From: Taxawa tesnikishii (nom. ined.)
Taxonomy: Eukaryota > Ascomycota > Dothideomycetes > Dothideales
DNA length: 64,000 bases
NCBI GenBank assembly: GCA_030247885.1
Contig: JAPDRO010000004.1
Coordinates: forward strand, 1,054,001 to 1,118,000
Direction: 5' to 3'
The translations under genes and the position numbers were made by a program. Below the pieces are notes generated by a model, which saw only the letters and a list, made by a program, of their open reading frames with translations, was not told the origin of the DNA and did not search any database. Positions 5,016-64,000 of the stretch are shown one piece after another. Numbering within the stretch: the stretch's first letter is position 1; the number at the start of each line of letters is the position of its first letter.

Positions 5016-7831
5016 ATGAGCATCTGCACGGAGTTTTGCAGTCAGCTGCGGGCGATCAAACTAGAGGATGGCGTCCTCCTGTCGCACGACGAGCTAGTAG
5101 AGCAGCTTCAATTCACTGACGATGATCTGGAGCAGGGACGACATCTGGGCACGTGGCAGGAACTGCAGCAGCGAACGCTGTGCGCCTTTTGTCAACTGGT
5201 GGTCATCGCCACCTCTGACAGCGTGGGAGCAAACCAAAGCGCAGCCATCCGCCCTGATCAGGCCATTGGCGTCTTGATCTTCCCAGGCGAGCAATCTTTC
5301 CGATTGTCTTATCCTTCGCGCTTAGGCATTCGGCTTGCTTTTCTGGCCGAAGGTGGCACTTTTGCCAGCGGGCCAGACTCTGCCAGATTGGTTCGCGGGC
5401 CCCGGGTACCGGTGTCGAGGATCCAGAGCTGGCTGCAAGCCTGCGATCAGAAGCATGAGGCATGTTCACCTGAGGAGGTTAAGGATAGATCAGTTCGTTG
5501 TGTCGGCCCGAATCTATTTGTGCATCGAAACATTGACGGGCAGACAGGACACTAAAACATCAATAGGGCGAAGGGACTTTAACGAGGCTGCGACTTCCAA
5601 CTTCCGCGTCATTGATCTCAAGCTCGGCTGCGTAAGGCGTGTTGCTTTGAACACCAGATACGTGACATTGAGCTATGTCTGGGGGCAATCGCCAATGTTT
5701 AGATTGCAGTTGGAGAACTTTGAGCGCCTATCAAAGGAAGGCAGTCTGGATACCATCCGAGCACAACTGCCCAAGACAGTCAACGACGCCATCGACCTGG
5801 TCAAGGCCATGGACGAACGGTTTCTCTGGGTTGACGGCCTTTGTCTCGTACAAGACAGCGAGGATGACGTGACTTTGGGTATCGAAATGATGCACTCAAT
5901 TTACCGAGGCTCCTATTTCACGATTGTCGCAGGTTCTGGGCGCGATGCAAATGCAGGTTTGGAAGGGATGGGTGAAACTGTTCAGGGCTATCGAAATCAC
6001 CAAATCATCAAAGAAATCGCTCTCGGTATCAGGATGACAGTGCTTCGTAGCATTGATTGGTATCTCAGCAGGTCTACCTACAACAGGAGAGGCTGGACCT
6101 TACAGGAACTTGTCTTGCCCCGTCGAACAGTAATCTTCATAAACGGACAGGTCTACTTTCGATGTCAGGAAGCAAATTGGAGCGAAGATTCGTGGGCCGA
6201 TCACTGGACGAGGTGGCTGGACGCGGATGACAGCAACATCTCCCGGCTTCCGGAGCCCGGAGACGGGTTTCTGCCCTCGTTGTGGGCATATCAGAAGTTA
6301 TGTGAGGATTTCTCCCGCCGCAAGCTCCGGAGCGACGGCGATGCCCTCCGCGCTCTTGCAGGGGTTACACGCCCTATGGCATCCGGCATGGAGACATGCA
6401 TGGTCGAGGGTCTCCCGGTTACTACCTCAACCACTTCCTGTTCTTCATGTCTTCGAAAGGCGATTTGCGAAGGCGCTCCGAGTTCGCAAGTTTCTCCTGG
6501 GCCGGCTGGGAGGGCCAGATCATGTGGCCACGGGAGAACTTCTTGTGGTACGACAACATAGACGGCATCGCACAGCCGACATGGGAGACAGCAAATATTC
6601 TGCAATACTTCAGGCATATGAGGGTTGTGGATTGGAAAGCCCTGGATTCAAAAGGTTATCTTCAATCCTTGAGTTCCCGGATGTGGGAATTGCCCTCTCT
6701 GCTATCCGAGCTTATACGCGAGCACCCACGCACCTTTTCTGCAGTCGACATGGATCCTGGACGACAGCGTGATGAGTGGCAGTATCACAGCATCTCCGGA
6801 AGCAGTGGCGACATGCCTTACTGGGACCGATCTGATGACTCCGTCGCTGACAACGAGGGAGAAGAAGACTATGAGATGAAAAGGAGGATTGGACCCAGAC
6901 GAGGATTCTCGATCCGTGGTTTTGAACTGGCTAACGGAGAAGCGGAATTCGAAAGGCTTGTGCAGCGACTCGAAGATCCACTCGAAAGATTAACGCTTCG
7001 CAACTGGATAGCACAGCGTCGTTCCCGTAAAGATATACAATCGATCATGGGGATCACTCTGACAAGTGTTCGCAGGTGCTAATAGGGCTCTCCGGCGAAT
7101 GTCCGCTATAGGTCCTCGGCCGACCTCTACATACGGTGACGAAGTCTCTTCCAATCAATACGGGTTCCGACAACCGCGATCACCTGCCTTCCAGGACAAA
7201 TCACAAGTAGAGGATAAACGGGCAGAGAATGGGAGGCGCTGGGTGGAAATGCAGAAAAGGAAAGATGGTGAAATTCCTCAGGATGGCTTCAGGATTCCGT
7301 AATTTCTCCATACACCTTTCCGGTAACCGAGAGCGGCGCCGCTGACCTCGACATAGGAAGTTTCCTCCATACACAGTCCTTCAGTTCAAGACCATATCCA
7401 TGCATCTCATTCTGGGATCCGCTCCTGTGCGGGGTGAGCAAGGAGAGCACTCGCAATCCCGGCTCCACACGCCGAGCGACGATGAAACCCCATCGCAATC
7501 GCCTTTCGCTCGCATTCCCGGTGTTCCTCTTCTGTCCGCGCATGGCCAGCTCGTCGGCTCACTTCATCCTGACAACGTTGACATACTAGGGGCGCCAGGA
7601 ACGAAGGTCGAATGTCTCGTCATATGCCGCTGCAACACCCCAACTGTTGCCTCCGCTCTTCTTGCTTTGGGTGGTGCTGACACAGAGCGGCCTTGGGACC
7701 TCCTTTGGATACTTCATGTGATCTGGAAAGACGGAATTGCAGAGCGTCGCGGTGTCGGACAGGTGATGAGTTCAGCCATTGATACTGCCGTTGAGCCCAA
7801 ACCGGAGGTTAAGGATGTTCTCCTCGGTTGA
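5016..7831 (+). CDS. HET-domain (heterokaryon incompatibility) protein
   Basis: A HET protein of about 890 residues. Exon 1 starts at 5016 and contains TLCAFCQLV and an RIQSWLQAC...HEAC block, as in other HET proteins. An intron ends at 5566; the donor near 5493-5502 is uncertain. Exon 2 carries the HET core: RYVTLSYVWG, then LPKTVNDAIDLV, FLWVDGLCLVQD, IYRGSYFTIVA and NRRGWTLQELVL. It continues with the post-HET block LRRRSEFASFSWAGWEG. Further introns are supported at 7027-7075 (GTAAAG..CAG) and 7299-7356 (GTAATT..TAG). The last exon has LQFKTISM, GSLHPDNVD, WILHVIWKDGIAERRGVGQ and ends KDVLLG, a normal HET C-terminus. The reading frame breaks once near 6.4 kb, within conserved sequence and without a usable intron; see the finding on homopolymers. 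HET proteins trigger cell death on non-self recognition. The partner specificity of this one is unknown. Confidence 0.85.
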
Positions 7832-8168
7832 TGTTGAGTAACGGTACCGGGACATCCTTCGCCCAACCTTTCTTCTATCTCAATCATCCAGTTTTGCGTC
7901 ATTACAACAGATGTAGTGAGGATGTACGGAAGTTAACACGGACCAATCTACCATCTGGAGAGCTGCAGATGGTTTCGAAGTTCAAATTGAGAACTCGTCT
8001 TGATACCTGAACTGACTCATCCAGATCCGATCGAAGGGGATTTATGGTTGTCTGTTTTGAAGCTTGCTTGCACGGAGATCGCGTGAAGACTTTGCATCAA
8101 AGACTTGCTTTATTCACCCGGGAAAGTCACCTTCCTGAGTCGAACTCTATCATGATACGGTCGAGCTT
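7832..8168. other. Intergenic region downstream of the HET gene
   Basis: About 340 bases with no recognisable coding or RNA feature. It is likely the 3' flank of the HET gene. Confidence 0.4.
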
Positions 8169-8393
8169 ATGGATACTACCGACACGGCTCCCTCCAGACT
8201 CACGGACCTCCCTCCCGAGCTACGTAAGGTGATCTACGCTCAGGACAGATCTGACAGCACAGTCGGATACATGGATGTGTTCCCACTACACGGTTCAAGT
8301 CAGCCCCGTGCCATCACCGGAGTCCCAAGGCAGATACACCAAGAGAATCTCGCAGTCTGTGGTTCTTCGCTTATGCATCATTGTGTGTTGTAG
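8169..8393 (+). pseudogene. Short F-box-like / 2EXR-type fragment
   Basis: A 74-codon open frame begins MDTTDTAPSRLTDLPPELRK and continues with PRAITGVPRQIHQENL and a VCGSSLMHH end. That order, DLPPELRxxIY then AxTxVxRQIxxExLxVxYGSN, is the usual N-terminus of fungal F-box-like and 2EXR proteins. In those proteins it precedes 100-300 more residues. Here the region between the two blocks is shortened and a stop follows at once, with no further homologous sequence downstream. I read it as a truncated relic. A very short functional gene cannot be excluded. Confidence 0.45.
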
Positions 8394-9171
8394 AAGTCAA
8401 TGGAATTTCTTATACATCTTGAAACAAACTGTCGCCTCTAGATGCAGGCTTGACAAGAGCAAGGATCACCTACCCGATGAACGATAATAGTAACCTGTGA
8501 CCAAGCCAAGCTGGTTCCCAGATTCGTTGCATCTGACTGCGCCGGGTTCGAATGCGTCGGCGTGATCGACACATTGACAACCTCTCTCTTTTTGATGAGT
8601 GATTCAGCGGTGAGAGTGATAGCATGCTGTTCTATCACTGCCGTGACTGTAGCTACACGAGCATGGGTATCGCTGCAGGTTCTTCCGACCATGAGGTAGA
8701 TAGCCCGCAGCAGTCATCACTTTGAACCGTGACATCTCAATGAGTAGTTGCTCGGTTAAAGTGATATATGTATGGATCTGTAGCTGTCATCAGGCCCCGT
8801 GCCAAATCGGTAAGTTTTGTAACACCTTGGTGTTTAAGGGCTGCAGGGGCAAGTTACAGTGAGACATGAATAAAAAGCTAATGACCACTGCCTTGTATAT
8901 CCGTTTGAGAACCACTGCCGCCAAGCTACGCCGGGATTCGCTGCAAACAATGTTGTCGGAGGTCCACGCATGCCACGAATGTTTGCTTCTCTTACACCAA
9001 CAACAACTTTCCAATAGTAGTGAATCTACAACATAACAGCCTCAAATATTCACTCCGCGACAGCAGGGATATCGTGCAACTCGAGCATCCAGGCTGTAAT
9101 CTTAAAACTCTCGGAGCAGCGGCTTGTTGCCAAGGCAAAGTCATTTGTGGCAACACCACTTCTACAAAACG
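8394..9171. other. Intergenic region
   Basis: About 780 bases without a recognisable gene. A GGTTCGAATGC string at about 8543 resembles a Pol III B box but has no tRNA fold around it. Confidence 0.4.
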
Positions 9172-12143: not shown

Positions 12144-13192
12144 TCAATCACCCTCGTGCACAACCGCCATGTCCAACACTTCCGCTCTCGCCCGTCCCTT
12201 TGTCTGCCCTCCTATAAAGTCGCTGAGCTGCTTGAAACTGCCTGGTTCCACGAATCCAACAACCTCCCATTCGTCGCCCTCGACGTCCTGCGACTCGACT
12301 TGTTCCACGTAACCCAATATCCGATCCTTGACTGTGCCCGTCGCCTTCTCTCCTTCGGCCTCGTCTCCTGCCTTGGGCGCACTCTTGACTGCCTGTTTCA
12401 GCACCGAAGTGGGGCAAGTAATCCTCAACCTCATCCTTGCTCGGGCAACAGGTATGGGTTGGTGTGCGATCAGAGCCTTCATCGCATCCAGCGCTTGCGA
12501 CTTCGCCGACCTCGTCGTCACCACACCAGTCCACTTGGGCTTTGCTTCCAACCCATTTGCGGCACCCTCTCCCTCCGTAGGCGTAGCGGTGCCGCTCGCG
12601 CTCTGCTGGGCTCCCGCATTGCTTCCCTGACTGCTCAACTGATCCAACGCCTTCTCAATCATACCCGTCGTGTACACCCGCTTCGTCTTCGGATCGACCA
12701 GTTTCCCCGCCACGATGTCGATGACTTCATTGTGGACGCGCTCCAGCTGTGCGTGCCGCTCCTTCTCGCCGACCTGCAGTTCGCCCTTGTTCAGGATCTC
12801 GAGGATGATGTCGTTGAGGGATGTCTTTGCGCCGAAGGACTTTTGAAGGTCGGCGTGGGGTGCGACGGCGCCTTTGGATACGTTTATGAAGACGTTGGGG
12901 ATTTGGAGGACGTTGTCAAGATCGGTTTCGACGCCGGAGCGCCATTCGAGGACTTTGTTTTTGTAGCAGGCTATCTCGTAGCGTTTCTTGCCTGAACATC
13001 GTTGTTAGTTTCACACGCTTGATGTGGAAGGCTCGGACAAGGTGTGGGAGAGCGGGCTTTTGCGTGGGCACGAAGACTCATGTTCTGCCCCTCTCTTCTG
13101 TTTCTCTCTGAACGTACCTTTTTCATGCGCACGAGGGACACATTCGTGAGCTTGATTTGGTTAGACGGCTGGTTTATCTGTGCGCTCGGCAT
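12144..13192 (-). CDS. sdo1: Ribosome maturation protein SDO1 (SBDS family)
   Basis: Exon 1 is 13192-13118 and encodes MPSAQINQPSNQIKLTNVSLV then RMKK, the invariant start of SBDS proteins. The main exon runs from about 12986/12991 to the stop at 12144. It carries RYEIACYKNKVLEWRSGVE, VFINVSKGAVA and NKGELQVGEKER of domain I, MIEKALDQL of domain II, and PVARARMRLRITCP leading into domain III. With the GTPase EFL1, SDO1 removes Tif6 from the nascent 60S subunit. Two oddities are visible. First, a low-complexity Ser/Ala/Gly/Thr insert of about 40 residues sits between MIEKALDQL and SQALDAMKAL. Second, the donor (AAG then GTACGT) and the acceptor (CAG then GCAAGAAACGC) are out of phase by one base. 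The family sequence at that point is KKGKKR, so one G is probably missing at the donor. Otherwise the downstream CAAG acceptor at 12987 would give KKKRYEI. Confidence 0.93.
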
Positions 13193-17102: not shown

Positions 17103-17970
17103 GTGACTGCCTGACAGTTGGATTGACTGCACGACATTGCGATGCGCGATGCGCGATATATCGGTCATGTGTGTGTTAGACATGGATGTAATGTGTTGCC
17201 GCAAACGACGGTTCCTGTTATGAGGGATAAACAGCAGCCAACACACACACACATAAACATAAACAGACAGATGTCCGAGACAAAACAACAGGTACCCCTG
17301 TACTCGGCTACGGCCTCGCTACAACTCACTCCGCTCGTCCGATATCATAGCAATGGATAGCTAGCCGGCAGAAACGGAGTGAGGTGCCGGTAGTTGATGA
17401 AGTGGGCGGATGGTCGCAAACGCGTGTCGCGTGCCATCTTGGCTGATAAACGACTTGGCTGGAAGGTCGAAGTGGCATAGCGAGAGACACACGAAGGAGT
17501 CGGAAAGACAAGCATACGTCCCGTCAAACGCGTCCGAAACGGCTGCCATTGGACATCTGGGCCAGATACGGCAAGCAGCGTGCACGCATTCAGCGCTGGC
17601 GCAATCTAGCCCCGCGCCGTCGCACCGGGTCACTGCGTGCTCACCTAAGCGGGGCATATGTGGGGGTCATTGTATCATTCTCATTGGGGGAATTCCAAGG
17701 CACATGTGATGCACGACCAGGCACTGCCTGCAGTACATCGAGCACACAGCCACGCCTAGACGGAGCAAGCTGCACGCTCTCTCTCTCTCTCTCTCGCTTC
17801 ACCCTCCAAGTCACCATCTACCCCTACCCTACTTAAACCCGTCGTGCGCCGTACGCGCCCAAGCTGTCTGTGCCCAGCCTAAGACCGTCCGTCACTCAGC
17901 TTAGCTTTCTGTACAAAAGACAAGACAAAGACAATACATATTCTCCAAGAGTGTTATCCCAGCCGTCGCC
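17103..17970. other. Intergenic region with simple repeats
   Basis: About 870 bases. Contains a short CA tract at about 17240-17252 and a perfect CT tract at about 17777-17795 that lies in the presumed leader of the next gene. No recognisable gene. Confidence 0.5.
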
Positions 17971-18500
17971 ATGTTGTTCCGCATCACCGCCAAGATGTCG
18001 CGCAAGCAGCGCCAGAAGTCCTCAGCACCAGCCCAGCAGCAACACCGCGCCGCGGCCAGCAGCAGCAGCAGCAGCAGCACCCAAGCGGCACCATCCTCGA
18101 CAGCGTCCACGCCTCCGCCCACAAGCATCGTCCCCACCACCGAACGACCACCCTCCTTCGCTCCCCACCCTCTCCCCACCTCCCCGCCCTCCCGGACTAC
18201 GACGAGCTGAGCATCGACCTCGAACCACCGCCCTACAGCCGTTACGCCTCCTCCGTGCGCAGCCGTCGCGCACGACGCAACAGCGTCTCCTCCAGCATGC
18301 GACGGGTCCCTTACGGCAGCACCGCCGGTCCCGCCCGCCCACGCCCAAGGACGCGGCCCATTACCCAGAACCGACGGGTCACGGCCGACCACCCGGTGTG
18401 GGAGATGACGGTGGACGAGCAGGTGCGCCTGCGCAGGATGGGCATCGACCCCGTCATCAAGGCCGAGTTCATGCAGATGCGGAGGGGGAGCCCTGCGTAA
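17971..18500 (+). CDS. Small basic Ser/Pro/Arg-rich protein of unknown function
   Basis: The ATG at 17971 opens MLFRITAKMSRKQRQKSS, followed by a serine run encoded by AGC repeats and a Pro/Thr-rich stretch. That frame ends at about 18210. The adjacent frame carries the part that looks conserved: PDYDELSIDLEPPPYSRYAS, then SVRSRRARRNSVSSSMRR, and RVTADHPVWEMTVDEQVRL near the C-terminus, ending at 18500. The composition, the PPPYS motif and the compact C-terminal block suggest one small protein of about 175 residues. The change of frame falls in C-rich sequence at about 18160-18195, again by one missing base, with no usable intron. The function is unknown. It could alternatively be a shorter protein starting within the second frame. 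Moderate confidence that the gene is real, low for its exact structure. Confidence 0.5.
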
Positions 18501-19198
18501 AAGGGGTTCAGGAAGCTGGGGGCCGGCCAAGGCCGGAACTCTTGCAAGACGTGCTTGCTTTGCATGCAGGCAACATGAGACCGAATGTGACGGCGGTGGG
18601 GGCGCGAAGCCTCTGGGAAGGGCCTTGTGGAGCCAATGGCGAATGTACGACGCCCCCTCCCCCTCCCCCTCTGCGAGCAGGGGAGAGCGGGACGATTCGC
18701 GGCCGGAGGAGACAGATGACGAAGTATGAGATACGGTCGTTTTGGCGTGTGGGACGCAGGTTACCTACCTTCTACGACGGAGATGGAAGTGATTTAGGGA
18801 CGGAAAGGACGTTTTGACGAGGGAGATACGAACGTCGGGACTTGAGGAGGGAAGTCCAGAGGGGATATCCGGTTGGTGGGTTCCTGCCCGCTTCGGCCAG
18901 GTCTTTTCGAGGAAGATGGACCAAGGGGTTTGCATTGGTCGAAGCAGTTCCAACAACCTCGGGGTTGTTCAAACATCGGGGGGTTTTTTTGCATCTACTG
19001 TCTTGTTTCGTAGCTCAAGATATCTTCGTGTTATGTTTGTGCCAAATTTGCACGCAACACACCTTGATGGATTCGGCACGGGGAATGTCCGACGTGAACG
19101 GTGGCTTTTTACTTTTCAGCCCAGTGAATTCGCATGCGCGGAAGTTGGTTCCATTGAGTTTTGAGTTTGTTCAGAAGTCCGGTTTGGCCTTTGTTTTG

Positions 19199-19278
19199 GT
19201 GAAAGTGAGTGAATGAACGTTTTCATTCATTCAATTTCACTCAGTTTCACTTAGTTTCACTTAGTTTCACTCACTTTC
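19199..19278. repeat. Hairpin plus tandem GTTTCACTYA repeat
   Basis: GTGAGTGAATGAA at about 19204-19216 is separated by four bases from TTCATTCATTC, so the two can pair into a stem. About five imperfect copies of a ten-base unit (AGTTTCACTT / AGTTTCACTC) follow directly. The last copy (TTTCACTCACTTTC) is again complementary to the first arm. No coding potential. Confidence 0.75.
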
Positions 19279-22009: not shown

Positions 22010-25006
22010 TCAGTTGTTTCTCTTCGACTTCCCGGGCTTCTGCTTCTTTTCTTTGTTCTTGGCGTTCCCACCGCCAGCTGCAGCGGCATCCGCCTCAACA
22101 TCCTTCTCCTCCGCAGCGAACAGCTTCAGCAGCGCCGGCGTGAACTTCTCCAACTGCGCGATCTCGCCTACCTTGACGCGCATGTAATCGAAGGCCACAC
22201 AGACCTTCATATCCGTGCCGGACATGAGCTTCACAGTCGTCGCGGCACTGCTGGCCTCGGCGGGTAATAAAGGGCGATAGTTGTCGGACGCAGTGGCTGG
22301 TGGGCCGGCAGAAGAAGCGGCGGTCGCGGCAAGGTCGCTGATGGGGCCGTCCATTGCGTCGTCCGGTGCGTCGTCCGGGTTGGCCGAAACCGCTTCGTCG
22401 ACGATCATGGCTTCGGCAGCATTGTCATCGCGATCCGTGTACTCCATGACGGGCACCTTCTGGTAACGCTGACTGAAGTGGGTCAGCAGCGCAGCCTTCG
22501 CGTTCATGCCTGCTGCGACACCTAGTGCTTCGCTGGTCGTAGAGTGACTCTTCGCTTGCGCATCGCCGCGCAGTTCGTCGTCGAACGTCGCTTCGTGGAT
22601 GCAGACAGTGCTGCCCTTTCCGATTTGCATAAAGGCTTTGGAAGGGCGGCAATCGCCCGAGTAAGAGACCTTGAACCCCGAAAGAAACGTGAGGCTGACA
22701 GCACGGGCTCCGTGGCAGTGATAGACGGCGACGGACTGAATATCAGCAAGGTTGATGGCGGATGCTGGAACCTTGGATCGGGTAAGTTTGTCCAACCACG
22801 CTTCATGAGTGGTGAGAGGGTTGTAGTCCTCCGTGGATGGAGGGATGAACCAATTCAGGGAGGAGGTATTGTTGTAGCTCGAGGAGGCATTTGAAATGCA
22901 CAAAGGTGCGAGACGGGTGAAACCGTAATCTTCAACATGACTGTATTCGTATAGCCAATGTAGCATGGCCGGTTCTGCAATCACGGACAGCCGCGTGCCA
23001 TACTTCATGTGCTCATGCGCCCGGAAACTGGGAGATTGAGGGTTTGGATCGAGACCCGGACGCATGTTGTGTTCTGCCTGATACCATGCCTTGATTACCG
23101 AGACGGTGCCCAAATGATGGTCTGCGTGCATATGGCTGATCCAGATGATTCTTAGCTCTTTGAGGATCTCTTGGAGCTCATCTGCAGGAAAGACACGCTT
23201 CAGCTGTCCGAGAGTGTTCTCACCACAATCGAAGAGCATGGAGCCCCAGCCGGGCACCCGTAGCAAAGTAGCAGAGACGTTGCGATACTTCGACGGGATC
23301 GAGGACCCAGTTCCCAAAGTGACAATCTCCGCGTCTTTGCTAGGTAAACTGTTGGCCCAGACATCTAGGGCACTGTCGTTCTTGATGTCTTCTTGCGCCT
23401 GTCTAGCCAGTTCCAGCACTTCGGGTGAGGCCTTTTTCAAGACTTGGTCCATGTCGAGTATTGGTGAGGTTTTGTCCTGTTGCAGTTGTATCGAGGGCTC
23501 AAGGTGGAGTTCCATCCCACGATCAGCGACAAGATCGAAGTCGTTCGATGTCATGGCTTCTGTCACATTGCTGTCATGCACAGGCACCCCATAGCGTGCA
23601 GGATCAACTTGCTTCAAGCGTAGCGTAGCAGCCGCCGCCGAATCCATGGACAGTCTATTTGTGCAAGCCTCAGGCGAAGACAGGATATGCTTCATGTTCT
23701 TGCGCTCTTGGATGAACTGCTTCAGCAAAGAATGCTCCAGGACTCCGGGTCCCAAAATCCAGAAGAAGGCACCGACGCCCGTCATTACTTCTTCGGATCT
23801 CCATTCAGGCCGATTGATGAACGCTTCCACATAGTCCGAAGATGGCAGATCGACAACTGCGACCCCTCTACCTTCTCTGCCTTCTTCTAGAACCATATCA
23901 GGCGTGATAGTCTCCCCTTTGCGTTTTCGACGCTCTCTCCATCGCTCAGTCTAGTCCACTTGATTCCCTTCTCCACTCCCAGTTCTAAGGCGCGCTCGGG
24001 CCTGAATTTCCCTCGCTGGTAATGGTTGCGGAAAATGTAAGACACCGCTTCAGTCGCCGGCTCCGTAGATGGTAGCGTCTCAACCAATGCTCCGGGCCAG
24101 GGGCGTCGAACCAACACGTTAATGTCAGGAACTTCTCGCGAGCCGTCAGGCATCGGCCCTTCATACTTTTCGATCTTGTTCGTGTCGGGGTTACGAACGA
24201 ATAGGGTGGCTGGTAGCTTGACCTGGTTGATTGGAGTCTCGAACAGAGCATCCAGACGCCAAGCAGAATCGAACATTTCGGAAACCACGGCCTTCGCCGT
24301 CATCACGGTTTTGTCCTTTTCTGTGAGATCCTGTGCTGGTACAACTTCCGCAGTTGCTGTGGGTGTCTTGCCATTGAGCTCATCAAACCCCGCTTTCGGG
24401 GACTGACGGTACCACTGCTTGTGAGCTCCATCTTTCTGCCCGGTGCTGGCTGAATTGGCATAGCCCAGACTTTGATATTGTCATCCATCCAAGTCGGCGG
24501 CATCTCCATGCCATTTTCCCTCTCCTTGCCCTCCATTCCTAGCTCATGCACCTCAAGCGGCATGCCCTTCCTGAACACAAATCTTCTTGCCGTTGCCAGA
24601 GTGTAGTTAAGATTACTTGGGCCGAATATAGACAATCGTACCCTTTCTTTCGCTTCCTTCTCCACCTGAGCATTGATGTCTTCCTTAGCAAGCTCTTTTT
24701 CTGCCTTCGGGCCTTGATGATAATCTTCTTCCTCAGCTCGTCCTTTGCAGCTGCTGAGCTGGCAGATGCAGCGTCCGCCAGTGTTAAGATCATGCCGATC
24801 AACCCGCCATTTTTGTCCCATTCTGTCCTGCCTGTGAGGAAGATCCCAGAGACCTTGAGTAACCGCGCACCCTGCTGCACTGCCGCCCGCTGAGTGCCTT
24901 CCGACACGTTGCCGATCAAGTACCGCTTGTTGTCGAAGTGCAGCAGCAGAGTAGTGCCTGGCGTATCCGCCGTAGGTGTGGTCAAAACCTGGATGTAACA
25001 ACGCAT
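22010..25006 (-). CDS. trz1: tRNase Z, long form (3' tRNA processing endonuclease)
   Basis: The start ATG at 25006-25004 opens MRCYIQVLTTPTADTPGTT, the usual N-terminus of fungal long tRNase Z. With about 1000 codons the length is normal. N-half features: LLHFDNKRYLIGNVSEGTQR, FLTGRTEWDKNGGLIGMI and LSIFGPSNL. The middle block VVSEMFDSAW leads to VRRPWPGALVETLP. The C-half has the PxKxRN loop (IPSKYRNVSATLL) and the metallo-beta-lactamase motif SHMHADHHLGT at about 23100-23140. Later zinc-ligand blocks (YSGDCRPS, HEATFDD, THFSQRY) and a Lys-rich tail follow. The enzyme cleaves the 3' trailer from pre-tRNAs in nucleus and mitochondria. The reading frame shifts three times, each by one missing base in a homopolymer: T run at 24696-24700, TTT at 24433-24435, CCCC at 23914-23917 (plus-strand bases). 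Conserved sequence continues across each, so I treat the gene as whole and the breaks as likely assembly errors. No intron is needed. Confidence 0.92.
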
Positions 25007-25714
25007 TTTTGTGAGCAAGTCCTGGGCAAGCTCTTCGCTGCGGTCCTGGACGGATGGTGGAGGGTGGTAGTTCTCAAATAAACTCGTTGAGGAAGGATAA
25101 ACCACTTGATACCGTCTGATGTAGTTGTCAAACCTCGTAGGCTCGTACTGTGTGCCCACGTCTATCCTCCGAAAAAAGCAGAACGATCTGACCGCCTTAT
25201 CCCATCCCCGTAATGATCATTTGACAGTCGCGGTTTTGTAGCACTCGTGAAGCGCCTCAGGGAGCGAATCGAAGCCAATGCGATGGTGTGTAGAGCCTGG
25301 TGATGGAAAGTGTTCGAGCACCTGTACGTCTAAAGTCATCCGGGCAGTACTCGGAAAGGATGTACAACGAGTGGAAAAAAGGTGACAGCTTCAATGATTC
25401 ATGACGCCGAGTTTCGCGCTCGACTGTCGCGGTGGCACGTGAGCGTCTTCAATCCCAAATCATCAGCTGAAGGGACGACTGCTCGGACGTATACAAAACA
25501 ACTGTGCATTCCGCTGGAGGCAAGGCTAATGTGTCTATCGATGAAGTATATACAGTGTCTCAATCCAACTCCCAATGTCCCAAACGCCATACCAGAACGG
25601 AAGGTTCGCGCCGGAACTCATCTGACCCAATAGATAACCCTAACAGAACCAGACACAAAGCAAAGAAACTCGTAGAGCGCCGTCTCAAATAGGGATAAGA
25701 GGGATGCAAACTAA
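25007..25714. other. Intergenic region
   Basis: About 700 bases between the tRNase Z start and the bZIP gene's stop, both on the minus strand. The frame of tRNase Z stays open upstream to 25159 but without an ATG. No other feature. Confidence 0.5.
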
Positions 25715-33701: not shown

Positions 33702-35867
33702 ATGGCTTCCACATCACCTAGGCATACCCCAAGAGGTAGCGAAGACCTGGAGTTTAGGGATGAAAGGTATGTGGGCCCCTTAAAACACATCCAGATGCCG
33801 GTGTTTTTGTCAGGCTGTCATGTCGAGTGCTCTGCTGCCGAAATGCAAGGATTTAGCGGTCGTCTTAGGCACCGAGCAAACTTCTACGTGGCAGACTGCG
33901 CGTATATCGGCCTCCTCCTCAGAAGGGTTCTCCGCCTGATAGACGGCCTATGTCGAATACCGGCATCTAACTTGCTTTCCTACCATGCCGGGAATTCAAA
34001 CAACGTTCTGACTCTACCAGGTATATGGACAAGATCAGGCATCCCAAAAAGCTCATTCTGTGCTGCGATGGTTAGTCTGGACCGTATATTCGTGGGAGCT
34101 CCCATGCTAACTGCTGGTGCAGGCACGTGGATGGTACGCTACCAAGATTTCAACGCCTTGCGGCCTTGGCAAGCTACGTAACTAACACTTCCAGGATGCC
34201 GACAATGGCTGGGTCGAAGGACAGAACGGCAAGAAAGGCCACGTGCAGACCCCGACAAATGTAACCCGAATTGCGCGAGCCGTAGCGAACACGGACACCC
34301 AGAACCATGCACAAATCGTCTACTACCAGGCTGGGGTGGGAACCGGTAATGGAGTTATCAACCACTTGCTGGGCGGCGGAACCGGTCTTGGGATATCCGA
34401 GAACATCCGAGAAGCATACGCTTTCCTGGCAAGCAACTACACCGCCAACGACTCCGTCTTCCTCATCGGTTTCTCTCGGGGCGCCTTTACAGTCAGAAGC
34501 ATTGGCGGCATTATCGGCCAACTTGGTCTTCTCAAAAGGAGTGCATGCAATACTTTCGATACGTCTTCCACGACTGGGAGACAGCAGGTGATCCGAAGAA
34601 TGATACCACAAAGGAACCTTCTTTCATAGACGAGTACCCCGAGATCAGGAAGCACCCAAAATACAAGAAACTCGTGAAGCCAGCCAATCAATTCAATGGC
34701 ATCGACGAGTGGCTGGCAGAGTACAAGAAACTGCTCTATGACCTGGAGTTGACGCATCCCGTCCCAGTCAAGATCAAAGCCATCGGTGTCTGGGACACCG
34801 TGGGTGCTCTGGGTATCCCAGTCAATCCTCGTCTGGTGAAGATCTTCAAAACGAAGTGGATTAAGGAGTATTCGTGGTTCGATACTACCATCGGAAATCA
34901 CGTTGACTATGCCTTCCACGCTTTAGCACTCGATGAGAAGCGTGCGCCGTACCAGCCTGCCATCTGGGAGAGGCCTGAGGGCTGCAAAACCCACTTGAAA
35001 CAGGTTTGGTTTCCGGGAGCCCATTCAAATGTGGGCGGGAGCTACGAAGACACTGCTTCAGCCGACATCACATTGGCATGGATGATGGATCAGCTGTCAG
35101 GAGATGCTCTTCACGTGGACAAGCCAGATCTTTGGCGTCCAGTCGACTGGATTCAATTCGATGAACAGTACGTTCTCGATCAGTACAGCCGGTACAAACG
35201 CCCCCACAGAGATTGGAAAGCCTCGAACATCTGGGCGATGGGAAGGTTGATCGACTCTTTCAACGGCATACAAATGCTCGCTAGCCATCGGGATCGCGCT
35301 CCCGGCCGTTACCGTAAGATGAACTACGAGACCGGGATTGAGTATGGACCCGACTACGAACCTAACAAGTATCCGCACAACATGCTCCGCGACACTAACG
35401 AGCTCGTACACGCCTCGGTTCGCTTGCGTATCGATCTGGAAGGCAGAAGTCCCGAGGCTGAGCCGGGCCAACACGAACCCTGGTATACCAAGTTATACAA
35501 GAAGCTCAGAAAGCTCGCCTTCCTCGGCCCGTACGAGCCACGTGCACTGGATGGCTGGAGTCTACAGGACGGCCACGAACATAAGCAAAAGCAGATGAGG
35601 GATTCGACATCTGTCGATGGCTGGAACGTTGCCGATATCCAGTCGCGAATCGGGCAAGGCGTTCAAGGAAAAGCTCCTGTGTGGGTCTGGAAAGGGAAGC
35701 TGGACTACGCCGACGTACCCAGGGATTGGTCGCCGAAGTCTATGGAGGAGGACCGCCTCGGCAAGTTCGAACTGGAACTGCTGAGGGCGTTCGATACCGA
35801 AGATAGAAAGATTGCGGAGTGGGTTGAGAGGACTAATAGAGGGCTCACTCCCTTGAGGGAGGACTGA
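33702..35867 (+). CDS. DUF2235 alpha/beta-hydrolase-fold protein
   Basis: Four exons: 33702-33766, 34021-34070, 34123-34133 and 34195-35867. The joined sequence reads IRHPKKLILCCDGTWMDADN across three splice junctions, the canonical start of DUF2235 (CDGTW). PTNVTRIARAV, YYQAGVGTGNG and the nucleophile elbow FLIGFSRGAFTVRSIGG follow. Later blocks are IGVWDTVGALGIP (with the family Asp), FHALALDEKR and QVWFPGAHSNVGGSY (with the His region). Exon 3 is an 11-nt microexon encoding only part of GTWM. Intron 1 is long (254 nt). The frame breaks once near 34.53 kb, by a missing base in a four-A run, between GQLGLLK and CMQYFRYVFHDWE. DUF2235 proteins are predicted serine hydrolases; fungal members are numerous and uncharacterised. 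About 620 residues, no signal peptide. Confidence 0.9.
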
Positions 35868-36461: not shown

Positions 36462-37681
36462 TTAAGCAGTAAAAACCTTGCCTGCCCGAATCTCTTCGAA
36501 GGCCTGCATCGTATGTTCCCACACCTCGTCCCCAAACCCTTTCTTCCTCAATTCCTCGTACTTCGCATTGACGTCGAGAGCCCCACTGTTGTCCGCGACA
36601 GCATATGCACCACTTCCTCGATCTCCGTCGGTGCCCAACGCCACCTCATCGCCCAGTTTCCTGGTCTCTGCACCATCTCCCGCCGGTGGGAATCTTCTAT
36701 TATTGGCAAGATATATCGTCCTTGCTGCGCTTTCCGCCGCGGGAAGAGCACACCATCTACTCAGCGCCGGTCCAACTATGGCCCACATCAAGCGGAACCA
36801 CCATGGCATAGTCGAAGCATAGAAAGCCGGAGTGATAACCAGTCCTGGATAGACGTGCACCAGGCTCAATCCTTGATGCTGTCTAGCGAGATGCTCGAAG
36901 GCCATGGTCTTCATATGAACGACATGGGAGCGGGCCTGGTGGAACCCGTAGTTCTTCGGCGAGCGGAGAGACAGGTCGTCGGGAATAAGTTTCCCTTCCA
37001 AGCCAGCAGCATAGACCGAGATGACGTGCGTATGGGAAGCGGATACTGAAGGAGCGAGGAGTGGGAGGAGGTTCTGGATGAATAGAATGCGGGAGTAATA
37101 GAGGAGTGACATGGTCCGATCGAGCCCTTCGGGAGTTTCTGGAAAATCTGGGTTTAGAGCTGTGTTCGGCCTGTGGCAACGCACGGCATCGTTGGATCCA
37201 TGACCACAACGTCGGAGAAATGACGGACAAGGGCGATGAGACGGATGAGGACATACCGTGTCTTGGACCAAAACGCACCTGGCCTTGCGACATGACTAAG
37301 AGATCAATCTTCGCTTCCCTCTGCACGCCTCCTCTCTCTCTCTCGTCTTCTCACTCTGCAGGATCTTTTCGCACGCCGAATCCACATCCTTCAACAAAGC
37401 AAGATCGTTAGCCTTCACAAAGATTGGCTCGAACTTGCTCTTGTCGGAGTATAAATCAGAGCAATGAGAGAACGTCTCCATGGCAGCGGAACCATTGCGG
37501 CCAACAATGTACATACGAAGGCCACAGGAGTTGTGCTTGGAATTCAAATCGGCGAGGAGACGAGCAGCATATTCCCTATGCCTGATGTACCGCCGACTAA
37601 GACAACAACGTAAGGTTCGGATGATGAATGAGAGGAAAAGAGCTCCGCATTGACTTGCTTGACATCAGGGAGTGCAACCAT
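36462..37681 (-). CDS. Short-chain dehydrogenase/reductase
   Basis: Start at 37681 gives MVALPDVKQVNAELFSS. The last exon is 37138-36462, after an intron at 37256-37139 (GTATGT..CCAG). The protein has VVVLVGGTSGIG, the NAD(P)-binding TGxxxGIG-type motif. LRMYIVGRNGSAAM is the second strand, followed by KIDLLVMSQG (the NNAG-equivalent). The last exon has LDRTMSLLYYSRILFIQNLLPLL, then a GFHQARSHVVHMKTM stretch at the place of the YxxxK catalytic pair, and HVYPGLVITPAF. It matches a fungal SDR subgroup of unknown substrate. Two frame changes are needed: one at a CCC run (37574-37576), where one G is missing after GTSGIG, and one in a GA-repeat region (about 37320-37345). An upstream ATG at 37816 would add a 45-residue hydrophobic N-terminus and a possible membrane anchor. 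Total about 345 residues. Confidence 0.8.
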
Positions 37682-49291: not shown

Positions 49292-50949
<1,658 letters not shown>

Positions 50950-53900: not shown

Positions 53901-54311
53901 AGACTAGAGGGTCGGTCTGTCGTCACACTTGGTGGGTGAAGATGCCTGTTTTGAAGCCCCTCAGCCTCTCCGACTTCCTTCCCAAAGGACGGTGAGGCTT
54001 GCAATCTCCCTCTGATTAGAAACACCCGTTTTTCAGAAGATTGCGCCATGCAACGGCTGGATCACCGTCTCCGTTTCCGTCTTCGTTGCTCTACCGTTCT
54101 TGTACGCGCCTCGATCCGCCTACTTCCAAGATCGCAAGCCTCTCGGTTTTCTTTTCATGAGATAGATGCTCCAGCTTTCACAGCCCGTGGTCCTTGAGCA
54201 CCGTTTCTCCTCGCTTAGTTCCCCACTCTTAATTCCTACCCAATCACGCGTTCCAACCCGTCTTGTCTGGATTCCTGCACTATTGGTCTGCGCATCCCAT
54301 GTTATGATTCC
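50950..54311. other. Gene-poor region, about 3.4 kb
   Basis: The longest stretch without a recognisable gene. Open frames up to 158 codons occur on both strands (51483-51788 +, 52810-53229 +, 53519-53995 +) but none shows a domain, biased codon use or convincing splice structure. It may hold a long leader of the downstream bZIP gene, non-coding transcripts or decayed genes. A short ATG-ATT-CCA-TGA upstream frame sits just before the bZIP start at about 54304. Confidence 0.4.
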
Positions 54312-54371
54312 ATGACTTGTCTAATAACACAACCTTTCCAACCTCCCATCGACTCTTTGCGTTGGCAGGCA

Positions 54372-55711
54372 ATGAATCCAGAGAGCTCCTCAACTTCACA
54401 ACGGGAGCAAAGCTCCTCGAAGGGCTACGCATCTTCAGAATCAGAGTCAAAAGCACAAGGAACAGCTGGGCCAGCCAAGAAACGACCTTCGAGAGCCGGA
54501 ACCAGAAGCGTATCGACGCTTTCAGCAGCACAACTTGAGAGGAAACGCGCAAACGACCGTGAAGCGCAAAGGGCGATTCGACAGCGTACCAAGGATCACA
54601 TTGAGACCCTTGAACGGCGCATTGGTGAACTTACTGTCGCTCAAGATGCAAACGAAAAGTTGATTGCGGCTACTCAACAGCGCAACCGAGAGCTCGAAGA
54701 GGAGAACGCCTATCTTCGGAGCAGAGCCGGTGGCGACACGTTCACGTTAAATGTCAACGAACCTGAATGTAAGAAGCTTTCGCTTGTAGCCGCCAAATAT
54801 ATACGATCCAGACCCTTAAAAGATACTTGGTACGTCCGAGTTCATTTGCTGATACCATTGAAGCCAAGGATACCGACCCCAATTTGGCAGCAGCTCCAGC
54901 GTCATCACCCAGGGCAACGCGTCTACCAGCTGGAGCAAGCATACCTCGACCTTCTTCGACATCCACTCATCGCAGTCACTCAATCCAGTCGCACAGTTCC
55001 GGGCAGTATCCTGAGCCATGGCGACCACATGGCGTGTATAGCCCATCCGGATCATCCACCTCAGTAACCGTACCAGTTCCGGAATCAGCCCAGCCAGGGT
55101 CTTTGTCTACTTCTGGGAACTGGAGAGCTCAACAAGGCGCAGCCACGTTACCAATGCCCGTCAGCCACCCTGAAACAAACAGAAGTTACCCTGCGGGTCC
55201 AATGCAAGAGAGACCTTCGTGGTCGAGCACGTCGTCAGGTTACAGCTACGTCACAGACCCTAACGAGCGTCAACCAAACTATCAATCGACACCCCAGCCT
55301 ATGGGCTATCCTGACGCTTCTCAAGGATCGAGCTACCAATCTATGCCCGCGCCTCCACCTCAACCTTCGACGTCCACGTACCACACGCCAGTTCTGACAC
55401 CTCACAGTGAGTTCCAGAACTTGTCTGTAGGCAGCCCGAGCACATATCCAGCTCCGCCAGCACCAAGCTTTCACAACCAGCAGACGCCTCATCCGAGTTA
55501 TCAGGTACCGCCAAGCCAAGTTACATCGGCTACTGAATTCCACGGTCCTCCTCAGCATGGACAGAACATTGCGCCATCGACGTACCCACAACAGGCGACC
55601 AATCCAGGTTACGGACAACAGTCCTTGCACTCCGGACAGAATATGCCAGTAGGGTATAGGGGAGACCAGAACCAGCAAAGCTATTCCTACGGAACATACC
55701 ACAACGGGTGA
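54372..55711 (+). CDS. bZIP transcription factor (second gene)
   Basis: The start chosen is MNPESSSTSQ at 54372; an in-frame ATG at 54312 would add 20 residues. The basic region and zipper read QLERKRANDREAQRAIRQR then TKDHIETLERRIGELTVAQD, the signature of a fungal bZIP class (RANDREAQRAIRQRTK). The zipper continues into RNRELEEENAYLRS. From about 54827 the reading frame differs by one missing base, best placed at the AAAA run 54818-54821. No intron phase solves it: donors GTAAG at 54769 and GTACG at 54830 give no in-frame acceptor. After the break comes a long Ser/Pro/Gln/Tyr-rich, disordered tail ending SYSYGTYHNG. The DUF3425 domain often found in this class is absent. About 445 residues. 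Nuclear, DNA-binding; target genes unknown. Confidence 0.8.
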
Positions 55712-59000: not shown

Positions 59001-59303
59001 CGTGGGAAAGCGCTAAGTGGCGCAGGTATACAGCAGCACAGCACTTATGGCGACGGTCTTTGTGACGAGAAGGGTCAGGATCAGTGCTGTCAGTAAGAGA
59101 GCCATCACATCTTCGTTTGGAGGTCGTCTCGTAGTGGTGCACGTTTCATGTGGGCAAGGTTGGATGTATGGCGATATCGTGCGGGGTACTGAGGATGGCG
59201 CAAATCCGCGCAATACACATGTGACCTTGTGCAACAGAAGTCGCAAACACTCGATACTCTCTGCTATTCTATTCCTCACACCACCTGTTACTTTCGTTTT
59301 CGT
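59001..59303. other. Spacer between the two oxygenase genes
   Basis: 303 bases forming the promoter of oxygenase 1 and the 3' flank of oxygenase 2. No feature identified. Confidence 0.5.
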
Positions 59304-60455
59304 CTAGTGATTCCTCTCTACAATCTCCTTTGCGAAAGTAGCAAAATCCCGCTTCTCGTCCACCATCTCCCACAGATTTGGCTGCGTGAAGACGGCCAAA
59401 GTGTTCCGAGCTACCTTCCCGCCCTTTCCGGGCGCAGCGCCGCGCACAAAATGCGGCACGGCCCTGAATTTGCCTTTCGTAATCACCTCCAACGCTTCGC
59501 CTGTCTGAAATGCTAGGCAGTCTTTCGGTATGCCAACCTTGGTCACCTGACCCGAGCGCGAGTGGATATATAGACCTGCGCGAGAATCCGGAGTGGCCTG
59601 CAGCTCCGGAAGGGGCGAATGATCCGTCTTCTGCGAGGGCGGGTGTGCCGCTTCGTCAACAAAGGCAGCAGATGTGAGACCTGTGAGGCAGCCGTGGTCA
59701 AGGTGGGTAGCACACCAGTCGTCCGAATCGCTATCTGCTGCCTCCGCTTGCGATCCATCCGCTTCTGGAGACGGGAAGTAGTGCAGCAAGCGCGCTTTTG
59801 TGGAAACGCTCGTCTTGACCACATGTTCTAAGTAGCCCTGCTGATAGCCCTCGACGTTCTTCTGCGCGTAGCGATCGCATGCTTGGGCAACGAGCACAGC
59901 GGTGTCGATGATCATGTCGCACAGGCTTTGGAACGTCTCACGAAAACCGGGGAGGACGCTCTCATCGGGCCAGACATTGGGTGCAGTGTATTCCGGTAGG
60001 TTTGGGTATTTCTTCTGAGCTAGTTGCTGCGTCTCGGGGTCGTGCACTGGGTTCACGTAGTAGCTCCCCTTGAGCGTGTCGTAGCGCCCATCTTTGAGTG
60101 TTTCCTTGCCGCACGACCAGCCAACGAGGAAGTGGGATCCGGGCGATTCCAACTTGGCTTGGTAAGACGTAAGCAAACGATAAGAAATTGCAGATGATCA
60201 ATGTTACCTAGCTCGGACTCTGGCAGGTTTGCTAGATAAGAGGAGTACGAGAGTAGCTTTGCTCTCAACGTGACAAATTTGGAAGGCAGGTCGCGAACAA
60301 TGACTATACCCAAAGACGATGGGCCAAACGCGTTCTCCAAGGACTCAAAGGGAACAGAACCTACTTCGATGAGACTGTTGCTCCTATCCAGACACAGAGT
60401 TGAGTGTACCTGCGCGCAGCTCTTCTAAGCTGACCGAAACTGGGGATGCCATCAT
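59304..60455 (-). CDS. 2-oxoglutarate/Fe(II) oxygenase, clavaminate/IPNS-like (2)
   Basis: Three exons (60455-60410, 60360-60208, 60157-59304) give 350 residues. The start MMASPVSVSLEELRAGS joins across intron 1 to VPFESLENAFGPSSLGIVIV, the DIOX_N start of a distinct fungal subgroup. HFLVGWSCGKE and GSYYVNP follow. The iron site is CATHLDHGCLTGL (His and Asp) and RAVPHFVRG (distal His). RNTLAVFTQP holds an R-x-T in place of the usual R-x-S. The Glu/Asp/Ser-rich loop near residue 195 is typical of the subgroup. Its substrate is unknown. It is only distantly similar to the neighbouring oxygenase, so a recent tandem duplication is unlikely. Introns: GTACAC..GTAG and GTAACA..CCAAG. The frame is intact. 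Cytosolic. Confidence 0.92.
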
Positions 60456-60651
60456 GCGTTTTGATTCACAGTCACCCTTGCTAGATTTTCCGGTCGCTTT
60501 CAGATCGCCCTCTATCAAGTTGAATAGTATAGTGGAGGAAACAGTTCTGAGGAAAGCTTCACGACCTTCGCGAAGATAACAGACTCACAAACCTCGGCAT
60601 TCCCCGAGCTCCACCACTATTCTTCCGCACCACATCCCACATCCTCCTACT

Positions 60652-61526
60652 ATGGTCAAAGCGCTCAGCTTCAAAGGCGACCCGAAGAAACCCAAGAAGC
60701 GCAAGCGCGCCGTTCAGGAAGAGGATGAACCCGCCGGCTCATCTTCCATAGCAGCGGATGCCGCGCCAGCAGACGAACAGAACTGGGTCTCCGCCGACGC
60801 CGTGACAGACATCACTGGCCCCATCATCGTCGTCCTACCTACACAACCGGTAACATGTCTCGCGTGCGACGCGAATGGCAAGGTCTTCGCCAGCAAGATC
60901 GAGAATATGGTTGAAGACGAACCCAACACTGCCGAACCGCATGATACGAGACAAGTTTGGATCGCGAATCGCATCGCGGGGACTGAGAGCTTGAGTTTCA
61001 AGAGCGGGCACAACCAGAAGTGAGTCGGCATTTCATGGGCGAGGAAGCTCAAGAGTGCACTGACTGATGCGGTTCAATCAGATACCTTGGATGCGACAAG
61101 TTCGGCATCCTAGGCGCCACGACCGAAGCCGTATCACCAGAGGAGCAATTCACCATCCTCCCCTCCGCCGAAGGCAGCGGCATCGGCGCGCAATTCTGTC
61201 TCCAGACTACCATGCGCTCGAAATACATCACCATCTCAGATTCCAACGCTGACACCGCAGCCACCGAAATCCGTGGCGACGGTGAATCTGCAAGCCCGGA
61301 GACGACCTTCCGGATCCGAATGCAAGCGAAGTACAAGCCGAAGCTGAAGGCGGAGAAGGTGGAGAAGGCCAGGGAAAAGGTCACGCGCTTGCAGCTGGAG
61401 ACGGAGGTGGGGAGACGGTTGGACGATGATGAGGTTAAGAAGTTGAAGAGGGCGAGGAAGGAGGGGACGTATCATGAGGCGCTGCTGGATGTTAAGGTCA
61501 AGGGGAAACATGACAAGTTTGCTTGA
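60652..61526 (+). CDS. FRG1-like protein
   Basis: Two exons (60652-61019, 61082-61526) give 270 residues. The N-terminus is basic (KKPKKRKR), likely a nuclear localisation signal. NWVSADAVTDITGPIIV opens the FRG1 beta-trefoil domain. TRQVWIANRIAGTESLSFKS and KYLGCDKFGILGATTEAVS, the latter assembled across the intron, are family signatures. The C-terminus is highly charged (KPKLKAEKVEKAREKV) and ends KHDKFA. FRG1 proteins are nuclear/nucleolar, bind RNA and actin, and associate with spliceosomal particles. The start follows a short leader and is the first ATG in the frame. The frame is intact. Confidence 0.93.
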
Positions 61527-62612
61527 ATAGTGGATCTGCGAGTAAGCTAAGATTACTTGGACAATGAGGGTATGGAGATGTCCCTGCGGAGATGTGGATT
61601 GTCGAGGGAATCGACGGAATGAGCGTCCTTGGAATTTAGAAAACTCCATGCGGAGCAGAACTAGCTCCGAGCAACTGTAATGGGGGCATCCAAAATGGAA
61701 CGCGAAACCTCACGCCACGGAACTTTGTTAAACCAGGCTCATGTTGTCTACCAAAGACACGGATTTCATCAGACCTTGTCTATGCAATACCTGATGTAAA
61801 AGCATATACAAGGAAGCCGTATGTATGAATTGCTTTGACGCAGCATAGGTTGGATGCTCTCATTGAACTGTACCTCCCTGTCAAAGACTAGCTCACTGCT
61901 GGTTGCAGTCAATGGGGCCCACTAATTTATAGCAACCTGTTCCTCAGAGACCTTCCGTATCCACCGTCAATGTATGCCCTGCGCCGATGTCCTGCTGATT
62001 TGAGCAGCTCGCTATCAAGGACACCGTTCAAGGCTGAAGCGAAGAGGGCCCAAATCAAGTCGACGGCTTGGACGCTCAGTGCGATCAGCGACGGGCTACT
62101 GGGCAGACCAGATCATACTAGGAATCCTCTTGTCACGCTATTTCCCACCCACCGCCTTCGCGCTCGTACGATGGAATAGGCCGTGGCGATCCTGCACTGG
62201 CAAGCCCAGAGTCGACGGCTCATGACGAAAAGATCGGTCCTCGAGACGATTCCACCGATTTGATAAAAGCCTTTGGGTTTTGTCTTCAGAGGGGCGGGAA
62301 AACATCTTGACGGGCAGATGTTCACTCAAAACAGATGAGACATGAAAGGAGTATCGAACAAACACGTATTACGGCATATACAGAACCTCTCCTCTTCATC
62401 TACAGACAAAGCCCAACCTACGCACAGATTCGCATATATATCCCCCACCCGGCTGTCCTGATCAAGAATGGCACCTAATCCGCCTAAAACCCCTCGCTAA
62501 TGTAGAAGCAAAATAGATTTATCAAACTCCGAAGGCAAGAATTTCCTCTTTTCGTAACGTCATATCCGAATATCGAATAACCCTTAAGATCCCATATCCA
62601 AAAGCTCCGCGC
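61527..62612. other. Convergent intergenic region
   Basis: About 1.1 kb between FRG1-like (+) and the SYLF gene (-). No recognisable feature. Confidence 0.5.
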
Positions 62613-64000
62613 TCACGCTTTGGCGTCCTTGGGATCCTCATCCGGCGTAGGCGGCAGCGAGTGGAAGCTACCGGGCATATCCGCGGAATCGGGAGAGCCC
62701 TGCCTAGATCTCCTCTCCATGATCTTGGCCCAGGGGTTCCTTTCCTCAGCACCGGCGTCGCTGTCGGATGTGATATCCGAAGGTGTGACGCCGTCACCGA
62801 TGCTCTTTACCGGGGATGCGGGGTTCGACCACCCTCCTCTGACAGTAGTGGGGCTGCGAGACCTAGGCGTCATGGGCGAGGCAGTAGCGGATGTAGGTGT
62901 AACCTCTGCAGAATCCGCATTGATGACGAGGGGACCGCGCCTGTTGGGGTTTCGTGGCGGGAGTCTGGGAGGAGCGCGCTTGGCTACGGTGACCAGACGC
63001 GCTTTGGAGATTACCTGTGGAGCTGCTGCTTTCTGAATAGAATGCACAGTGGGTTCCTCGATGTGGACGTCAGTATCGTCTGCTGATTCTTCTACGTCCG
63101 CATCGTGCTCTTGTTCGGGTCGGCCGATGGAAGTTCTGGGCGAGCGCGACTTCGGAGGCGTGTTTGACCGCGAGGAAGACGACCTCTGGTGGCCATTGAC
63201 GCGACGTGGTGGGGAAGGCGACTTGCGCACCGGAGTCTGAGTGGCTACGCCGTCTTCAGGTATATCATCCATTGCGGTGCTTGAGGTGCGTCGCGGGCTA
63301 CTGCGAGTGCTGCTCCGGCTCGGACTAGGCGGTTCCGAGAAATCCGTCTGAGTAGACATCTCCCTCATCACCACCGGTCGCTTCTCCTTCTCGCCGTCCA
63401 CTGTGGTCACGCCGCTCAGCCTGCTGCCTGCATGACTGTTTGCCGAGTCCCGCTTCCAGCTGCTTTGTCTGCTAAGAGTCATGATGCTCCTGCTGTCCCT
63501 GTCCTGGCTCTTGCCACTATATGTGCTGTATATCGGGCTGGTAGGCGAAGGCTGGAAAGTGAATTGTTCCCAGCTCGCCCTCTTTTGTGATCCCGCCTCT
63601 CTGATTCCGAAGCCTTCTTTTTCAAGCGCCAAAACTCCGTAAGGATCGGGATCCTCTTTATCCGGTATGCCAAACATGTGATTGTCTTCGATCTCAAAGT
63701 CTCCCGGGGCGGTTCTGAAGGTACAAAGCTTTCATCGACATCCTTATCACCTTGTGCTGCTTTGATGGTTTCAAGAAGCTTCCGTGTCTCGTAGGGAGCA
63801 TGCCGCACTTTCCCCGCCAGAATGTCGCCTACAGATAACTTTTCGCCGTAGAAACGCTCGTTCTCATCGGTCCGCTCGATGACTACTGTGCCATCGATCT
63901 GAATGCCGGCATAGAAGCCCCGCGACTTCAGGTATGTAAATACCGGCGCCTGCCGTTTGTGTATTTCCGTCTCGAGTATGCCTCCGGCTCCCACCGGTCC
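62613..64000 (-). CDS. SYLF-domain (Ysc84/DUF500) actin/lipid-binding protein, C-terminal part
   Basis: The gene enters from beyond the right edge. The visible N-side is the end of a SYLF domain: GAGGILETEIHKRQAPVFTY, then RGFYAGIQIDGTVVIERTDE and FYGEKLSVGDILAGKV. It continues with PYETRKLLETIKAAQGD and then DNHMFGIPDKEDPDPYGV, a fungal-specific extension. After this comes a long Ser/Pro/Arg-rich disordered tail with phosphorylation-like RSxS motifs, ending at 62613. There is no SH3 domain at the C-terminus, unlike yeast Ysc84. The frame changes once near 63706-63709: conserved sequence reads PSEPP before and GDFEIEDN after, consistent with one C missing from a four-C run (minus strand). SYLF proteins bind phosphoinositides and actin at endocytic sites. 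Confidence 0.88.

What the first reader, a model, noticed from the sequence alone, without database searches (positions are those of the whole stretch)
6400..63710. At least ten frame breaks, all one missing base and nearly all in homopolymers: an assembly signature
Apparent breaks occur in tRNase Z (24696-24700, 24433-24435, 23914-23917), the SDO1 donor (13117), the dehydrogenase (37574-37576 and the GA tract near 37330), the SYLF gene (63706-63709), the second bZIP gene (54818-54821), DUF2235 (34534-34537), the HET gene (near 6.4 kb) and probably the 18 kb small protein. In every case the frame moves the same way (one base short). Nearly all fall on a run of two to five identical bases, and conserved sequence resumes immediately. 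Random decay would give both directions plus stops. tRNase Z and SDO1 are normally essential. I infer systematic homopolymer under-calling, and these genes should not be annotated as pseudogenes.
Basis: partly seen in the sequence, partly recalled or inferred. Interest (0 to 1): 0.75.

Follow-up and report, generated by a model that had tools for sequence, protein, structure and literature searches.

The report
Missing bases in a fungal assembly
The broken reading frames in this stretch of fungal DNA are almost certainly a sequencing artefact, seen across the same assembly, that drops one base from runs of identical letters, so the genes are probably intact in the living fungus.

Summary
The finding holds up as an assembly artefact. 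A gene-model scan with equal penalties for one-base losses and gains, on the window plus 26 other stretches of the same 29.4 Mb fungal assembly (317 kb), called 25 losses and 1 gain at a middle setting, and 12:0, 19:1, 37:3 and 43:5 at the others. The detector is near-symmetric: planted losses 71/126 and gains 63/130 recovered; finished E. coli gave 12:7 to 15:12, p 0.36 to 0.70. Breaks follow homopolymer length: estimated rate per run about 34-38-fold at length 3 and 212-313-fold at 4, relative to single bases. Coding runs of six are scarce: A/T 4 against 26.8 expected, G/C 0 against 41.2. In-frame stops are rare: 2 against 38 losses. The tRNase Z N-domain has one match in the genome; SDO1 has one full-length locus plus a partial relative. 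Corrections: the bZIP break is not supported, one dehydrogenase break lies in a GA tract, and runs of two carry no signal. The platform, probably nanopore, is inferred; no reads or relatives were available.

The parts
22010..25216 (-). tRNase Z gene, three apparent frame breaks (about 24709-24696, 24434-24398, 23921-23914), all in the one-base-short direction
   Evidence: First and last fragments match 5mtz in order, 41-118 then 273 onward; the third fragment matches RNase_Z 139-188 weakly; 24398 and 23921 called by the scan at 1e-3, 24709 only at 1e-2; sole Lactamase_B_4 match in the genome
12144..13192 (-). SDO1/SBDS gene; exon 1 and exon 2 frames disagree by one base at the intron (donor near 13117)
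   Evidence: Exon 2 matches SBDS; sequence and frames read by eye
   Evidence: Local frame test; no significant Pfam, NCBIfam or PDB match for the pieces given
62613..64000 (-). SYLF (Ysc84) gene, break near 63713-63706
   Evidence: Ysc84 match in the upstream frame; scan call at 1e-3
34186..35867 (+). DUF2235 / Tle1-like_cat gene, break near 34536
   Evidence: Profile 14-133 in one frame, 128-287 in the next, overlapping on the DNA; the scan itself bridged it with an intron
5326..7082 (+). HET gene, break near 6414 and possibly 6880
   Evidence: HET domain; 6414 called at every prior tried; 6880 at 3e-3 and 1e-2
17837..18817 (+). small unnamed protein near 18 kb, break near 17996, loosely placed
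   Evidence: Called at every prior tried; 90% set spans 52 bases with no run of four or more
54219..55711 (+). second bZIP gene; the claimed break at 54818-54821 is NOT supported, introns are an equal or better reading
   Evidence: bZIP_1 in the upstream ORF, below the family cut-off; intron path; weak local test

Best explanation
The breaks are consensus errors of a long-read fungal assembly in which homopolymers of about four or more bases are under-called by one base, with a chance that rises steeply with run length. Each missed base shifts the frame in a gene that is intact in the organism. Shown: the direction, the spread over the assembly and the dependence on homopolymer length. Inferred: that the cause is sequencing and not biology, and that the platform was nanopore without enough accurate polishing.
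For: Losses to gains 12:0, 19:1, 25:1, 37:3 and 43:5 at five priors on 27 stretches, 317 kb (p values). Detector recovered 71/126 planted losses and 63/130 planted gains and gave 12:7 to 15:12 on E. coli K-12 with introns switched off. Break rate per run relative to single bases 34-38-fold at length 3 and 212-313-fold at length 4; likelihood ratios 18.8, 23.1, 31.8 at three priors, 4 df. Rough under-call rates 2.3%, 19%, 64% for true lengths 4, 5, 6. Coding runs of six: A/T 4 against 26.8 expected by codon shuffling, G/C 0 against 41.2; E. coli 70 against 72.7 and 4 against 17.7. In-frame stops crossed 2, against 38 losses. One Lactamase_B_4 match. Nanopore-only fungal assemblies are reported to have frame-shifting homopolymer errors (PMC7500977, passages; PMC9453082, passages).
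Against: No reads and no relative's DNA were available. The model gives zero rate to runs of two and 13-16% of breaks to runs of one, with wide intervals. A simpler position weighting showed only mild enrichment, 4.6 against 2.7 expected locally for runs of four or more. A/T runs of exactly six number 3,839 genome-wide and runs of nine or more exist, so truncation is partial. Part of the run shortage can be natural: E. coli G/C runs of six are at 0.23 of expectation. PMC7500977 found polishing adding more insertions than deletions. Dispersed 5S genes gave no clear case. Among kinase fragment pairs too close for an intron between them, 4 of 9 are gain-type, though all 4 leave room for a read-through intron.
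Confidence: 0.95

Rival explanations
1. Real gene decay: the genes are pseudogenes that lost single bases.
For: Single-base losses in homopolymers also arise by replication slippage (recalled). Five of the 11 listed sites are in genes not known to be essential, such as HET and DUF2235 (inference from family names).
Against: One-sided direction on 27 stretches; in-frame stops 2 against 38 losses; the gene with the only Lactamase_B_4 match carries three breaks, and tRNase Z and SDO1 are needed for normal growth in yeast (recalled).
Confidence: 0.03
2. Pervasive programmed -1 ribosomal frameshifting at slippery runs.
For: The direction fits -1 frameshifting. An in-frame slippery heptamer lies in 5 of 43 credible sets, against 2.8% at random coding positions, p = 0.007, and 4.4% near length-matched runs, p = 0.04.
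Against: 38 of 43 sets have no such heptamer. Sense A against T and G against C runs do not differ significantly, p = 0.10, though C runs take more than G (9.5 against 3.2). The SDO1 disagreement lies at a splice junction. Runs of six G/C are also short outside genes, which translation cannot cause.
Confidence: 0.01
3. Unrecognised introns account for the frame changes.
For: The model sometimes bridges a break with an intron; for the bZIP gene that reading is as good or better. Of 9 kinase fragment pairs less than 40 bases apart, 7 leave 55-112 bases spare, enough for an intron, and these are 3 loss-type and 4 gain-type.
Against: DUF2235 and the third tRNase Z break are continuous by homology (23, 29). 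The 2 of 9 kinase pairs with no room for an intron are both loss-type, one of them with stops inside its first piece. Introns would not be one-directional or follow run length.
Confidence: 0.01

Closest known systems
Homopolymer-length errors in nanopore-only assemblies of the fungus Drechmeria coniospora (PMC7500977)
   Same: Frame shifts in conserved genes, most errors in homopolymers, corrected with short reads (passages seen)
   Different: There the polished assemblies had more insertions than deletions; here losses dominate
Homopolymer indels in nanopore assemblies of filamentous ascomycetes (PMC9453082)
   Same: Small indels in homopolymers that break predicted proteins (passages seen)
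   Different: There no homopolymer indels were seen in three test genes at 100x coverage; here about 0.45 losses per coding kb are estimated

Membership tests
Systematic homopolymer under-calling in a long-read assembly | Errors are losses, not gains | tested here: met
   25:1 and four other priors; controls
Systematic homopolymer under-calling in a long-read assembly | Error chance rises with run length | tested here: met
   runs of two are an exception with zero estimated rate
Systematic homopolymer under-calling in a long-read assembly | Errors spread over the assembly | tested here: met
   18 of 27 stretches at 1e-3, 20 of 27 at 3e-3; about 1% of the genome was examined
Systematic homopolymer under-calling in a long-read assembly | Long runs fall short of expectation | tested here: met
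   In coding DNA by codon shuffle; only partial genome-wide, stronger for G/C than A/T
Systematic homopolymer under-calling in a long-read assembly | Accurate reads show longer runs | not testable with these tools
   No reads held
Pseudogene decay | In-frame stops alongside shifts in both directions | tested here: not met
Programmed -1 frameshifting | Slippery heptamer in frame at the site | tested here: not met
   Present in 5 of 43 sets, a slight excess over the matched control of 4.4%, p = 0.04; absent from 38

The most novel reading that the evidence does not exclude
The fungus really has shortened runs in its genes and reads through them by -1 frameshifting or by transcript slippage at short homopolymers.
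Probability: 0.01. Interest if true: 0.95.

Novelty: not a real feature. Interest (0 to 1): 0.12.

Why it matters
If this assembly is public and annotated as it stands, roughly 0.45 false one-base losses per coding kb (a rough estimate) would break a large share of its genes and create false pseudogenes, false short introns and false gene losses, including in genes needed for growth such as tRNase Z and SDO1.

Tried and rejected
Dispersed 5S rRNA genes as an untranslated control: 47 matches (46 over the cut-off), 20 fetched; 44 matches span exactly 120 bases, and the 119-base copy is a diverged variant, so it shows nothing. Kinase census: 141 matches, 9 close same-strand pairs, only 2 of them decisive. 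Sugar transporter, MFS and AMP-binding searches: only 9, 9 and 14 candidates scored, biased to intact copies, not counted. PDB search of the 24303-25073 minus-strand ORF gave no tRNase Z hit; it is mostly a wrong frame upstream of the first break. PDB search of a dehydrogenase piece gave nothing. Organism: paper searches by assembly size found 0 papers and none with that size among 10 listed of 1,598. A search on mononucleotide repeats listed 10 of 56 papers; I read parts 1 and 2 of 3 of PMC2621210, whose figure of 72-97% of genes with 5-base repeats does not discriminate. Another search listed 10 of 11 papers, none read. The first paper search listed 6, one read in passages. Runs of two as a signal: rejected.

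Full report
Setting. The window is G000:C29:1054001-1118000 of a 29,367,862-base assembly in 34 contigs with no relatives held. The gene content and introns point to an ascomycete fungus (inference). I fetched 25 stretches of 10 kb from 23 contigs and used them with the window and the 3.1 kb locus L002: 27 stretches, 317,138 bases, about 1% of the genome.

The listed breaks. Three-frame translation shows open sequence moving to the one-base-short frame at the listed genes (read by eye). Independent support varies. The unselected scan calls 6414, 17996, 63713, 24398 and 23921 at prior 1e-3, and 24709 only at 1e-2. The third tRNase Z break is continuous by homology: the frame before it matches RNase_Z profile positions 139-188 (E 6e-5, below that model's cut-off) down to about base 23908, and the frame after it matches 5mtz from about base 23917. 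DUF2235 is continuous in the same way. In SDO1, exon 2 matches SBDS from its KRYE stretch, while the exon 1 frame ends one base out at the only good donor seen by eye. The dehydrogenase sites rest on the local test alone, and the second is in a GA tract. The bZIP site is not supported.

Direction over the assembly. I wrote a gene-model scan with coding, intron and non-coding states and equal penalties for a missing and an extra base, trained on the same sequence. Losses to gains were 12:0, 19:1, 25:1 and 37:3 at priors 3e-5, 1e-4, 3e-4 and 1e-3 and 43:5 at 3e-3; two-sided p values run from 5e-4 to 1e-8. At prior 1e-2, tried on the window only, there were 9 losses and 2 gains. Losses fall on 14, 18 and 20 of 27 stretches at 3e-4, 1e-3 and 3e-3.

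Controls. Planted losses were recovered in 71 of 126 cases and gains in 63 of 130, with one gain called as a loss. On 150 kb of finished E. coli K-12, with introns switched off and a higher start rate, the scan gave 12:7, 12:7, 14:10 and 15:12 (p 0.36 to 0.70). Of the 12 places printed there for prior 1e-4, 9 lie at or near junctions of neighbouring genes and 3 inside genes (read). So the scan has false calls in a genome with overlapping genes, but not the one-sidedness seen here.

Homopolymers. A first weighting by position showed only mild enrichment: 4.6 breaks on runs of four or more against 2.7 expected locally and 1.3 from all coding positions. A likelihood model over runs gave, relative to runs of one, 0 at length two, 34-38-fold at three and 212-313-fold at four; five or more is unstable. 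Likelihood ratios against no length effect were 18.8, 23.1 and 31.8 with 4 degrees of freedom. Runs of one took 13-16% of breaks, with 5-95% intervals reaching 0.5. Dividing by the simulated sensitivity gives rough under-call rates of 2.3%, 19% and 64% for true lengths four, five and six, and 0.45 losses per coding kb. A model free to differ between A and T and between G and C runs was not significantly better (p = 0.10), though C took 9.5 and G 3.2.

Run-length spectrum. In coding DNA, A/T runs of six were 4 against 26.8 expected from codon shuffling and G/C 0 against 41.2; E. coli gave 70 against 72.7 and 4 against 17.7. The whole assembly has 3,839 A/T runs of exactly six, 747 G/C runs of exactly six and 764 overlapping matches of nine A or T. 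Scaled from the sample's counts of length five (223 A/T and 159 G/C), the ratio from five to six is 0.19 for A/T and 0.05 for G/C. So G/C runs are clearly short and A/T runs only mildly so genome-wide; part of this can be natural.

Homology check elsewhere. Among 141 kinase matches, 9 same-strand neighbour pairs lie less than 40 bases apart. Seven leave 55-112 bases spare, enough for an intron that the alignment reads through; 3 of these are loss-type and 4 gain-type. Two leave no such room, on C7 and C14, and both are loss-type; the first piece of the C14 pair has stops inside.

Against decay and against programmed frameshifting. With in-frame stops allowed as a competing event, 2 stops were crossed against 38 losses and 3 gains, and 4 against 44 and 5 at a looser prior. 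Lactamase_B_4, the N-terminal tRNase Z domain, has one match in the genome, in this window. SBDS_N has two over the cut-off; the second covers only positions 41-83 and is probably a different short SBDS-like protein (inference). In-frame slippery heptamers occur in 5 of 43 credible sets, above random coding positions (2.8%, p = 0.007) and slightly above run-matched ones (4.4%, p = 0.04); 38 of 43 lack one.

Literature. PMC7500977 (passages) reports that nanopore-only assemblies of a fungus had most errors in homopolymers, with altered reading frames corrected by short reads; there polishing brought more insertions than deletions. PMC9453082 (passages) names homopolymer indels as the main accuracy problem of nanopore ascomycete assemblies.

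Verdict. The breaks are an assembly artefact with high confidence; the sequencing platform is an inference. These genes should not be annotated as pseudogenes on this evidence.

Noticed in passing
G000:C2 (413883, 810272 and 878577; 446460 and 965342; 91522 and 543198): Contig C2 holds sets of kinase matches with the same profile span and near-equal scores, as if parts of it were duplicated; it also lists few long A or C runs for its 1.16 Mb.
   Followed up: no
G000, many contigs: 47 dispersed 5S rRNA matches, a few clearly diverged (C33:370879, C7:164756, C15:542712).
   Followed up: partly
G000:C10:190577-199414: Three AMP-binding domains within 9 kb, one in an open frame of 2,757 codons: a probable non-ribosomal peptide synthetase region.
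   Followed up: no
G000:C3:334062-334085: An unbroken run of 24 A/T bases, showing that not every long run is shortened.
   Followed up: no
   Followed up: partly
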